Of a DNA stretch of 64,000 nt, positions 6,478 through 9,400 are shown in pieces. The stretch covers positions 1 through 64,000 of the IMG/VR virus record IMGVR_UViG_3300042486_001390. One strand, 5' to 3'. The first letter of the stretch is position 1, and the number at the start of each line of letters is the position of its first letter. This DNA comes from a virus. The notes under the pieces were generated by a model. The model searched no databases, was not told the DNA's origin, and saw nothing but the letters and a program-made list of their open reading frames with translations. Position numbers and translations under genes: made by a program.

Positions 6478-6804
6478 CTTGCAATCTACTTAACAAGTCA
6501 AGCCGATTGTTACTATCCTTAAAGCCTCTATTGATTGCCATTAAGAAGCTCTTGCAATCTACTTAACAAGTCAAGCCGATTGTTACGGAATGACCGCAAT
6601 TATACGAAAAAGCGACTAAAGACTTCTTGCAATCTACTTAACAAGTCAAGCCGATTGTTACGTTACCGATTAGATTGTGGGGATTGTGGACGGTTCCCTT
6701 GCAATCTACTTAACAAGTCAAGCCGATTGTTACAAAACCCACCGATCCAGACACTTTAGCGGTTCTGGCTTGCAATCTACTTAACAAGTCAAGCCGATTG
6801 TTAC
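6478..6804 (-). CRISPR. CRISPR array, five identical 36-bp repeats, four spacers
   Basis: Repeats lie at 6478-6513, 6551-6586, 6626-6661, 6698-6733 and 6769-6804. All five are identical: on the minus strand they begin GTAACAATCGGC and end TAGATTGCAAG. Spacers are 37, 39, 36 and 35 bases, all different. The repeat can form a small hairpin (CTTGA with TTAAG, one G-U pair) and its ends pair through CAATC/GATTG. The array touches the 3' end of the TnpB-like nuclease gene: the last four bases of that gene region (GGG TAA) lie in the first minus-strand repeat. No cas1, cas2 or cas4 is in the window. Strand is inferred from the nuclease gene and the anti-repeat. I noticed no spacer match inside the window by eye, which is not a proper search. 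Confidence 0.95.
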
Positions 6805-8486
6805 CCAGTCTCCCAGAGTGTAAGCTGCGTATAGCCTGCGTTGACTGTTTGCGCGGGTTGCGAGTGGATCGACCTTTTCCTTGTTTTTTTCTTGGGTGTC
6901 ACTGGCTCGGAGGTCAAAACCAGTAAGGTTTCGAGGGTTTCTTCGCCGAGTAACAATCGGCTGGACTTGTCAAGTAATTCCTCCTGCGCTGATTCCTTAT
7001 CGAAATCCTTCAGAGGCTTAACTTCCCCGGTACAAGCCGGGTAGCTTCTTACGAAGTCTGCTTTCCCTAAGATGTTGATTGCGGCGGCCACATCTCTGGG
7101 TAAAGTACATCCACACTCTAAACATTTATGGGTGCGGGTTGATAAACTTTTTTTAACACGATTGCCACAGCGAGGACAATCTTGACTGGTGTAAGCTGGT
7201 TGAACTTTGATAAACTCTCGGTTGGGAGCTTTCATTTTCGTTTCAAGAAAACCAGTTAATTGTCCTAAACTAGCATCAGCAAAGGATTTATTTAATCCCC
7301 CTTTGGCTTTCGCGTTATTGCGTTCGTAGCCTTTACCGTCTTCTCTTTTTTTCGGTTTAGGTCGTCGCATTAAATTCTTTAAGTTGAGGTCTTCTACGGC
7401 TACAGCGCCATGATTTCTAGCAATATCGGTACTTAGGGCATGATTAAATCCTTTGCGTTGTCTTGCTATTTTTTCGTGAGTTTTGGCAACTTTAGCACGA
7501 GTTTTAGCGAGATTTTTGCCGTCTTTATTTTCCCCTGCTTTATACTGTCTAGCGGTTTTTCTTTGCAGTCTTGCTAGTCTTTTTTGCTGTTTTCTATAGT
7601 ATTTGGGCGGGTCAATTTGTTGCCCGTCGCTGGTACTAATTATATATTCTAGTCCTACGTCAATACCGATTGCTTTATCAGAATCAGGTAGATCATTTAC
7701 TTCAAATTCACCAAATAGACTTAGATAATATCCCGATGGGTATTTGATAATTGATACGGTAGAGGCTTTTCTGTCACCCCACCGAATGTCTAAGGTATTG
7801 TTGATAATCTTTAAATCGCCTAATGTTTTACCACAGCTACCTATAGATATTTTATCCCCTTTTCTAACAGCGCAATCGCTGATCTCAGAATAAAGAGATT
7901 TAATTTTATCTTCTTTTCTTTTAAATCTAGGAAGTTTTCTGTCTAAATTCTTTTTATCAAGTTTGGTGTAAGCTTTCCAAGAATCAGCAAGCTTTTTTAA
8001 AACCCCTTTAACAAAAGCCATAGGGATGTCTTTGCATAGTTCTGGACATTTTTCTTTTGTAATACAGCCACATAACCCAAAATAATTATCAGATTTTAAC
8101 CGCCGTTGAATAGGGATATGAACAGGATAAGAGTAACCTGCTTTTTGTCTTTTTTCTCTAGCTATCTGTATTTTAACTTTTTGCTTGCCAGTTAAATATT
8201 TAGGGGTGTAAAGGGGATTAGGAAGGGATTTACCTTTTTCGTTTTTTAGGGAGTCAATAAATTGAGGTTTTTTAGCTAAACGACGTTTAACCCGTTTAAC
8301 TGGTTTTCCTGTTATTTGCTCAAGCTCGTCGTAATACTTATTAAGCTGATATTCCATCAGTAGATCTAACCCAAAATTCCAGACAGCTTTAATCTCGTCC
8401 ATCCAGCGATCAATATAGGTTCGCTGAGTAGCATTAAGGTTAAGCTTTATGTCCGCAATAGTTTTTTTGACTAGCATGGTTTTCAT
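6801..8486 (-). CDS. TnpB/Cas12-like RuvC nuclease, candidate CRISPR effector
   Basis: A 561-residue protein of the TnpB (IS1341/IS605 OrfB) superfamily. The N-terminal helical and OB-like region spans about 1-265. RuvC-I is AIGIDVGLEY (Asp276), RuvC-II is AVAVEDLNLK (Glu365), the target-nucleic-acid zinc ribbon has Cys437, Cys440, Cys455 and Cys458, and RuvC-III is TLPRDVAAAINIL (Asp465). All three acidic catalytic residues are intact. It is longer than usual TnpB (about 400) because of an insertion at roughly 55-190 and a 90-residue C-terminal tail after the RuvC core. The tail coding region contains an anti-repeat matching the adjacent CRISPR repeat. No TnpA and no IS end structure flank the gene. 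Small Cas12 effectors (V-F, V-M and V-U types) have this size and architecture, so an RNA-guided DNA nuclease is likely; exact subtype is unknown. Confidence 0.85.
   Translation of the reverse strand: MKTMLVKKTIADIKLNLNATQRTYIDRWMDEIKAVWNFGLDLLMEYQLNKYYDELEQITGKPVKRVKRRLAKKPQFIDSLKNEKGKSLPNPLYTPKYLTGKQKVKIQIAREKRQKAGYSYPVHIPIQRRLKSDNYFGLCGCITKEKCPELCKDIPMAFVKGVLKKLADSWKAYTKLDKKNLDRKLPRFKRKEDKIKSLYSEISDCAVRKGDKISIGSCGKTLGDLKIINNTLDIRWGDRKASTVSIIKYPSGYYLSLFGEFEVNDLPDSDKAIGIDVGLEYIISTSDGQQIDPPKYYRKQQKRLARLQRKTARQYKAGENKDGKNLAKTRAKVAKTHEKIARQRKGFNHALSTDIARNHGAVAVEDLNLKNLMRRPKPKKREDGKGYERNNAKAKGGLNKSFADASLGQLTGFLETKMKAPNREFIKVQPAYTSQDCPRCGNRVKKSLSTRTHKCLECGCTLPRDVAAAINILGKADFVRSYPACTGEVKPLKDFDKESAQEELLDKSSRLLLGEETLETLLVLTSEPVTPKKKTRKRSIHSQPAQTVNAGYTQLTLWETG
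6950..6976 (-). ncRNA. Anti-repeat inside the nuclease gene (putative tracrRNA segment)
   Basis: Plus-strand 6950-6976 matches the first 27 bases of the minus-strand CRISPR repeat at 25 of 27 positions (two substitutions, at repeat positions 14 and 22). A minus-strand transcript through the nuclease gene therefore contains a segment complementary to the minus-strand crRNA repeat. This is the defining arrangement of a tracrRNA anti-repeat. It codes in frame for LLDKSSRLL of the nuclease tail. Whether a separate RNA is produced is unknown. Confidence 0.7.
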
Positions 8487-8514
8487 GGATCGACCTTCCT
8501 TTATTCTTACCTAA

Positions 8515-8543
8515 ATCTACCATAAGCTTTATAGAAATGTCAA
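8515..8543 (-). promoter_or_regulatory. Promoter of the TnpB-like nuclease gene
   Basis: On the minus strand TTGACA (8538-8543) is followed after 17 bases by GTAGAT (8515-8520), with an ATAAAGCTTAT palindrome in the spacer. Nearly the same sequence stands before the neighbouring gene at 9041-9069, so both genes probably share regulation. Confidence 0.55.
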
Positions 8544-8552
8544 GTAAGAAGT

Positions 8553-8996
8553 CTAAAGATTTTTTGGGATACCAGTTCCCACATCAGAACCTATAGCCCA
8601 ACCCTTATAAAAGCTAAAGCCAGTAGTATCAATATGAAGGGGAAAACCTAACTCTTCCCAGCAGTATAATAGTCTTAGTACATCAACAGTCTGAACCGTA
8701 TAATTTAATCCTGTTTCAGTGACGATAAATTTTTCAAAAATCTCTGGGGCAACTAAAACAGAACAATAGTTAGTGTCGTCAAATTTACCAGACTTTTTAG
8801 CTAATTCAGAAGTAATTGCGATCAAAATCTTTTTTGTAAGTAATCTTTCTTGCGATATATTGCTATCTAAGTTAGTCCAAGCAATAAATCTAACAATATA
8901 ATCAAATTTTAATTCTGTTTGATCTTTGGCAATTTTTCCAGTTACTCCATAAACAGGAGCATTAAAATTTTGTTGCACTTCTGGAGAATTAGACAT
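8553..8996 (-). CDS. Hypothetical protein upstream of the nuclease
   Basis: A 147-residue protein of mixed alpha/beta character, with a core of hydrophobic strands and a C-terminal GFSFYKGWAIGSDVGTG segment. No recognised family. It is transcribed in the same direction as the TnpB-like nuclease and has its own copy of the nuclease promoter, which suggests the two are expressed together. Confidence 0.6.
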   Translation of the reverse strand: MSNSPEVQQNFNAPVYGVTGKIAKDQTELKFDYIVRFIAWTNLDSNISQERLLTKKILIAITSELAKKSGKFDDTNYCSVLVAPEIFEKFIVTETGLNYTVQTVDVLRLLYCWEELGFPLHIDTTGFSFYKGWAIGSDVGTGIPKNL

Positions 8997-9040
8997 AACT
9001 TGTAGTAAAAAAGATGCTAAACTATATTTGACTAATTTAA

Positions 9041-9069
9041 ATCTACCATAAGCGTAATAGAAATGTCAA
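9041..9069 (-). promoter_or_regulatory. Duplicate of the nuclease promoter
   Basis: TTGACA (9064-9069) and GTAGAT (9041-9046) with a 17-base spacer on the minus strand. The surrounding 49 bases (9038-9086) match 8512-8560 at about 42 of 49 positions. The -35 overlaps the start codon of the divergent ribbon-helix-helix gene. Confidence 0.55.
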
Positions 9070-9212
9070 ACAATAAGCCTAAAAATTATTATCCTCTTAA
9101 CGTCCGTACTTCGCTACCTGAATATAAAAAACTAAAAACCTACTGTGATTCCCAGAAGCGGTCAATAACCGAGGTAGTTCGGGAATTAATTAGAAGTTTA
9201 CCCGATGACTGA
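9063..9212 (+). CDS. Small ribbon-helix-helix (CopG/Arc-like) protein
   Basis: A 49-residue frame: after a basic N-terminus it reads YPLNVRTSLPEYKKLKTYCD and then RSITEVVRELIRSLPDD, the beta strand, helix, turn, helix layout of RHH DNA-binding proteins. It is divergent from the 8553-8996 gene, and its start codon lies in the -35 of that promoter, so binding by its own product could shut off both. No clear Shine-Dalgarno is visible. A decayed copy of its first codons sits at 8537 onward next to the nuclease promoter. Role as regulator of the CRISPR-nuclease island is inferred. Confidence 0.6.
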   Translation: MSNNKPKNYYPLNVRTSLPEYKKLKTYCDSQKRSITEVVRELIRSLPDD

Positions 9213-9226
9213 TACTCAAGGATGTT

Positions 9227-9400
9227 ATTGGGATAGCTAGTGTTAAAAGTGCCAGTTCATAGACCGGCACTAAAGTTGCTTGCTCTTCATTCAGGTAGCA
9301 GTAACGCTCAGGACGACCGCCGCTAGAGCCTTCTAGGGGTTTCGACATTTGAAATGCGACAACTCCAAACTCTTGAATCTCGTTAAATAGTTGCCTGACG
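9227..9400 (-). pseudogene. Remnant of a Rha-type phage regulator
   Basis: A minus-strand frame without a start reads EFGVVAFQMSKPLEG and then RPERYCYLNEEQATL, close to the N-terminal domain of Rha family phage regulators (which have YLTEDQATLL-like cores). The similarity stops soon after, and the frame wanders on into unrelated sequence. I read it as a truncated leftover. Confidence 0.45.

What the first reader, a model, noticed from the sequence alone, without database searches (positions are those of the whole stretch)
8512..9212. Duplicated promoter and split RHH gene control the nuclease island
Positions 8512-8560 and 9038-9086 match at about 42 of 49 bases, each holding the same TTGACA-17-GTAGAT leftward promoter and the start of a small RHH gene. 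The 9063-9212 copy encodes the intact 49-residue regulator; the 8537 copy is decayed. The nuclease gene appears to have been placed under a copy of a pre-existing autoregulated switch.
Basis: partly seen in the sequence, partly recalled or inferred. Interest (0 to 1): 0.6.

Follow-up and report, generated by a model that had tools for sequence, protein, structure and literature searches.

The report
Duplicated phage switch controlling CRISPR nuclease
A family of viruses that probably infect cyanobacteria carries two near-identical copies of a small genetic switch, one at the switch-protein gene and a second in front of a CRISPR nuclease, so one tiny regulator probably controls both; the second copy recurs, in the same place and orientation, even in relatives where the nuclease has been exchanged for a different one.

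Summary
The repeat is real: 8512-8564 and 9038-9090 match at 85% over 53 bp, with no chance matches in shuffles. The right copy starts an intact 49-aa Arc-like RHH gene; the left copy keeps only its first ~9 codons. The left copy is not decay. In 53 related viral contigs, 45 carry 2-3 copies, all in one orientation and all in this island. All 43 C2c8 starts located there lie ~25 bp from a copy, although two C2c8 types (~29% identical) alternate behind it, and a 224-aa protein can replace them. The 31-bp core stays 94% identical across five unrelated downstream genes, while sequence 30-60 bp away is random. The nuclease is C2c8 (type V-U2) with a CRISPR array. Best reading: one RHH repressor binds both sites, controlling its own gene, ORF147 and the exchangeable CRISPR effector. 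Binding is untested. Phage V-U2 and RHH repressors beside type V effectors are known separately; the duplicated-operator arrangement in phages appears to be a new variant. RHH genes divergent from C2c8 or TnpB on plasmids suggest the nuclease may once have had its own switch.

The parts
9038..9090 (.). Proximal copy of the repeat: putative RHH operator, leftward promoter of ORF147 (-35 TTGACA 9069-9064, TGn, -10 TAGATT 9045-9040 on - strand) and start of the RHH gene
8512..8564 (.). Distal copy: same core, leftward promoter of the C2c8 gene (-35 8543-8538, -10 8519-8514 on - strand) plus a stub of the RHH 5' coding region
9063..9212 (+). Intact 49-aa ribbon-helix-helix (Arc-like) regulator gene
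   Evidence: ORF; PHROG Arc-like repressor E=1e-3; beta-alpha-alpha model, nearest PDB folds mostly RHH proteins (each E>0.3); pN/pS 0.45 over 14 relatives
8537..8596 (+). Truncated RHH reading frame in the distal copy (about 9 homologous codons, 19 in all)
   Evidence: sequence; homology
8553..8996 (-). ORF147, unknown function, first gene behind the proximal promoter
   Evidence: conserved in relatives, pN/pS 0.59; no family hit above cut-off
8487..8511 (-). 25-bp leader between distal copy and nuclease start; Shine-Dalgarno-like GGAAGG at 8499-8494
   Evidence: sequence; spacing fixed in 43 C2c8 genes; leader shared by two nuclease types
6801..8486 (-). C2c8 (type V-U2 Cas12) gene, 561 aa, behind the distal promoter
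   Evidence: NCBIfam NF038192 366.9 bits, cut-off 350; PADLOC Cas12u2 E=1e-125
6478..6804 (.). CRISPR array, five 36-nt repeats, directly downstream of C2c8
9015..9023 (+). Possible extended -10 (TGCTAAACT) of a rightward RHH promoter, upstream of the operator; weak
   Evidence: largely conserved in relatives; no -35 identified

Best explanation
A single Arc-like RHH protein, probably a repressor, binds two copies of one operator. Each operator lies between the -35 and -10 of an identical leftward promoter. The proximal copy controls ORF147 and overlaps the start of the RHH gene (autoregulation); the distal copy controls the C2c8 CRISPR effector and, by read-through, its array. The distal copy arose by duplication from an RHH-adjacent switch (it keeps a stub of the RHH gene) and now serves as a promoter slot behind which phages exchange CRISPR effectors. 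Likely logic: both promoters fire on infection before RHH accumulates, then are shut down. Shown: duplication, conservation, fixed position, alternative downstream genes, intact RHH gene. Inferred: RHH binding, repression, timing.
For: Two copies, none expected by chance. 45 of 53 contigs have 2-3 copies, all in one orientation; all 43 C2c8 genes located there (28 type A, 15 type B) start at a fixed ~25 bp from a copy. In 14 related records searched, every copy lies in one stretch and the reversed-pattern control finds none. The core is 94% identical across five unrelated downstream genes versus 22% 30-60 bp further on. TTGACA and the -10 are conserved in distal copies, where they no longer encode RHH. 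RHH gene intact under purifying selection with RHH-like fold. Four of eight distal core haplotypes occur with both C2c8 types; two contigs have both types, each behind its own copy. Arc-like RHH genes upstream of and reverse to cas12k are known in cyanobacteria (PMC9938897).
Against: No binding or expression data. RHH half-sites could not be defined; the core has no clear symmetry, and much of its conservation could be promoter alone. An RHH gene divergent from C2c8 on a Microcystis plasmid lacks this core (best match 11 mismatches), so the core is not universal to RHH-C2c8 pairs. The RHH structure model is modest (pLDDT 76) and the fold matches are individually weak. Many contigs are closely related, so counts are not independent events.
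Confidence: 0.7

Rival explanations
1. The repeat is a plain promoter duplication used by host or phage RNA polymerase; the RHH protein does not bind it or regulates something else.
For: Most conserved columns coincide with -35, extended -10 and -10; no RHH half-site symmetry found.
Against: Spacer segments TTTCTA and TTATGG are also conserved although a promoter does not need them; copies occur only in this island beside the RHH gene, not across the phage genomes.
Confidence: 0.17
2. The repeat is mainly a recombination arm or scar that lets nuclease cassettes be exchanged, with no regulatory role.
For: Distal haplotypes are shared between C2c8-A and C2c8-B; tandem modules in two contigs and deletion derivatives.
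Against: Fixed 25-bp distance and one orientation in 43 C2c8 genes; exact promoter elements kept behind unrelated genes with no other shared sequence.
Confidence: 0.08
3. The nuclease brought its own divergent RHH switch; after the island was assembled that RHH gene was truncated to a stub and the remaining RHH took over. (Differs from the best explanation in history, not in present function.)
For: Microcystis NIES-2481 plasmid p1 has an RHH gene divergent from a C2c8 89% identical to phage type B; a Chondrocystis plasmid has an unannotated RHH ORF divergent from TnpB; the distal stub lies exactly where such an RHH would start.
Against: The stub is 85% identical to the phage RHH gene start and unlike the plasmid RHH; plasmid and phage homology stops just before the nuclease start codon and the core is absent from the plasmid; the same distal core precedes non-nuclease genes.
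Confidence: 0.3

Closest known systems
Arc_1/Arc_2 (and CvkR) repressors of type V-K CRISPR-associated transposons (PMC9938897)
   Same: Small Arc-like RHH genes next to and divergent from a type V effector of cyanobacterial mobile elements, proposed as repressors
   Different: Effector there is Cas12k in Tn7-like transposons; one regulator-effector pair, no duplicated operator reported in the passages read; here C2c8 in phages with another gene between, controlled by two copies
Type V-U2 CRISPR of Aphanizomenon phage vB_AphaS-CL131 (PMC6293099)
   Same: Phage-borne C2c8-like effector with a 36-nt repeat array, no adaptation genes
   Different: No RHH gene or operator core next to the effector; effector 38% identical
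Phage P22 immI region (Arc/Mnt RHH repressors and Ant antirepressor; from general knowledge)
   Same: Arc-like RHH gene near a Rha/Ant-type antirepressor gene in intact relatives (L044, L093)
   Different: Here the antirepressor is convergent with the RHH gene or reduced to a remnant (52 aa in the window), and the regulated cargo is CRISPR
acr-aca loci: autorepressors of anti-CRISPR genes (PMC9410906 abstract, HTH Aca families)
   Same: Small phage regulator proposed to shut down a strong promoter of a counter-defence cargo
   Different: RHH not HTH; divergent not operonic; cargo is a CRISPR effector; two operators

Membership tests
Type V-U2 (C2c8) CRISPR | C2c8 effector above curated score | tested here: met
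   NF038192 366.9 vs 350 bits; type B 459 bits
Type V-U2 (C2c8) CRISPR | Adjacent CRISPR array | tested here: met
   window 6478-6804 and nearly all complete relatives
Type V-U2 (C2c8) CRISPR | RNA-guided DNA targeting activity | not testable with these tools
   needs experiment
RHH (Arc-like) DNA-binding proteins | beta-alpha-alpha fold and family match | tested here: met
   weak but consistent: PHROG Arc-like E=1e-3, model, most of the listed Foldseek hits are RHH proteins, E>0.3 each; no Pfam or NCBIfam hit
RHH (Arc-like) DNA-binding proteins | Binds the repeated site | not testable with these tools
   needs EMSA or footprinting
Arc_1/Arc_2 regulators of Cas12k CASTs | Gene divergent and adjacent to cas12k in a Tn7-like transposon | tested here: not met
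   effector is C2c8, not Cas12k; ORF147 lies between
P22-type arc/ant immunity | RHH gene next to antirepressor | tested here: inconclusive
   intact Rha in L044, remnant in window, divergent Rha in L093; no operator core before Rha
acr-aca operon | HTH regulator in one operon with anti-CRISPR | tested here: not met
   regulator is RHH-like and divergent

The most novel reading that the evidence does not exclude
A phage regulatory island in which one RHH repressor, through operator duplication, provides a standard promoter slot behind which different CRISPR effectors (two C2c8 types, sometimes both) and other genes are exchanged.
Probability: 0.5. Interest if true: 0.62.

Novelty: new variant of a known kind. 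Interest (0 to 1): 0.5.

Why it matters
How phages control the CRISPR systems they carry is little studied. This locus makes the question directly testable with two short DNA fragments and one 49-aa protein, and many natural variants are at hand. It also suggests that RHH control of TnpB-derived nucleases recurs across cyanobacterial mobile elements (CASTs, plasmids, phages).

Tried and rejected
Chance repeat: rejected. Dispersed genome-wide phage promoter: rejected, copies confined to one stretch. Decayed local pseudogene: rejected by conservation in 45 of 53 contigs. Host-encoded copies of the core: none in genome contigs; no close C2c8-A relative there by the scan. ORF147 function: model of low confidence (pLDDT 47), no family; left open. 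Operator half-sites: compared by eye for inverted and direct symmetry, no convincing assignment. Cyanobacterial genome-wide survey of RHH-C2c8 pairs: not possible. Rha gene as part of the regulon: no core in front of it in L044.

Full report
Observation. The repeat 8512-8564 / 9038-9090 is the strongest direct repeat of the region: 53 bp, 85% identity, 526 bp apart. Its 31-bp core is found nowhere else in the window and never in shuffles, and only these two full copies exist in the 90.6-kb virus record. The right copy begins the intact 49-aa RHH gene 9063-9212. The left copy retains the ATG and about nine codons and then enters the 3' end of ORF147.

What the genes are. The leftward gene behind the left copy, 6801-8486, is C2c8, the effector of type V-U2 CRISPR (NCBIfam 366.9 bits over a cut-off of 350; PADLOC Cas12u2), with a five-repeat array at 6478-6804. 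The small protein is Arc-like by PHROGs (E=1e-3), has a beta-alpha-alpha model (pLDDT 76) whose nearest PDB folds are mostly RHH proteins such as ParG, CopASO and Arc, each individually weak, and evolves under purifying selection (pN/pS 0.45 over 14 sequences). ORF147 (8553-8996) is conserved but of unknown function.

Relatives. Three protein scans and one DNA-pattern scan of viral contigs gave dozens of related loci. In 53 contigs, 41 carry two copies, 4 carry three and 8 carry one (some cut by contig ends), all in the same orientation. All 43 C2c8 genes located behind a copy (28 of type A like the window, 15 of type B, about 29% identical to A) start 25 bp from it (22 in three type-B alignments). 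In L043 and L044 the slot holds a 224-aa protein of unknown function (phrog_4652); L166 has a third copy before a 175-aa gene; L042 has two ORF147-like genes in tandem with three copies. Across five unrelated downstream genes the core stays 94% identical, against 22% for sequence 30-60 bp away. The promoter elements are conserved in distal copies, where they no longer encode RHH residues, so they are kept for their own sake. In 14 related records searched, all copies lie in one stretch and the reversed-pattern control finds none.

Recombination. Four of eight distal core haplotypes occur with both C2c8 types, and two contigs contain both types in tandem, each behind its own copy. Exchange has therefore happened at or near the operator. 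In L140/L032 the distal copy and most of the nuclease are gone but its 3' end and array remain; in L134, L161 and L065 a bare type-B array lies behind the proximal promoter.

Origin. Because distal copies carry an RHH stub, they derive from an RHH-adjacent switch. Two histories fit. In one, the phage switch was duplicated and the nuclease placed behind the copy. In the other, the nuclease came with its own divergent RHH, as on Microcystis aeruginosa NIES-2481 plasmid p1, where a 49-aa RHH gene is divergent from a C2c8 89% identical to phage type B. That plasmid lacks the core and its homology with the phages ends just before the nuclease start codon, which favours promoter replacement in the phage. 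A Chondrocystis plasmid also has an unannotated RHH ORF divergent from TnpB. C2c8 of phage CL131 and of two Chroococcidiopsis plasmids has no such neighbour. L041/L142 has RHH, ORF147-like and one copy without nuclease, but a remnant resembling the distal copy suggests loss, not the ancestral state.

Mechanism. The core lies between -35 and -10 of the leftward promoter and, at the proximal site, over the start of the RHH gene. The simplest model is repression: RHH shuts both leftward promoters and limits itself, giving an early pulse of ORF147 and C2c8. Shown: duplication, conservation, fixed geometry, alternative downstream genes. Inferred: binding, sign of regulation, timing. The host is not established; cyanobacteria (perhaps Microcystis) are inferred from the C2c8 relatives and from the Rha relatives in Aphanizomenon and Planktothrix phages.

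Known and new. Phage-borne V-U2 is described (CL131, PMC6293099), and Arc-like RHH genes divergent from cas12k are described as regulators of cyanobacterial CASTs (PMC9938897). I found no report of an RHH-controlled C2c8 in phages or of a duplicated operator serving an exchangeable CRISPR effector; searches were limited to open papers. I rate it a new variant of a known kind. The confidences of the rivals do not sum with the best explanation to one, because the third rival concerns history and is compatible with the same present-day mechanism.

Noticed in passing
window 6950-6985: Inside the 3' end of the C2c8 gene, 26 of 36 bases match the reverse complement of the array repeat, so a same-direction transcript could carry a tracr-like anti-repeat. 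The CL131 paper reports no tracrRNA around that phage's V-U2 locus. No such match in the type-B nuclease gene tested.
   Followed up: partly
L134, L161, L065: Type-B CRISPR mini-array directly behind the proximal RHH promoter with ORF147, the distal copy and the nuclease deleted.
   Followed up: partly
L140/L032 (and contigs ending at L033-L035): Same deletion allele: ORF147 joined to C2c8 residues 451-561 plus array, keeping the anti-repeat but not the nuclease.
   Followed up: no
window 9190-9348; L044 4202-4945: Rha/Ant-type antirepressor gene downstream of RHH is intact in L044 but only a 52-aa remnant in the window.
   Followed up: partly
window 6478-6804 and relatives: Arrays of different phages share some spacers in different combinations although no cas1/cas2 was seen beside them.
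   Followed up: no
L045, L049: The N-terminal tag QQNFNAPVYGVTG of ORF147 is duplicated or triplicated in some relatives.
   Followed up: no
L180 2974-3141 and 1732-2954: Unannotated RHH ORF divergent from an IS605-type TnpB on a Chondrocystis plasmid.
   Followed up: partly
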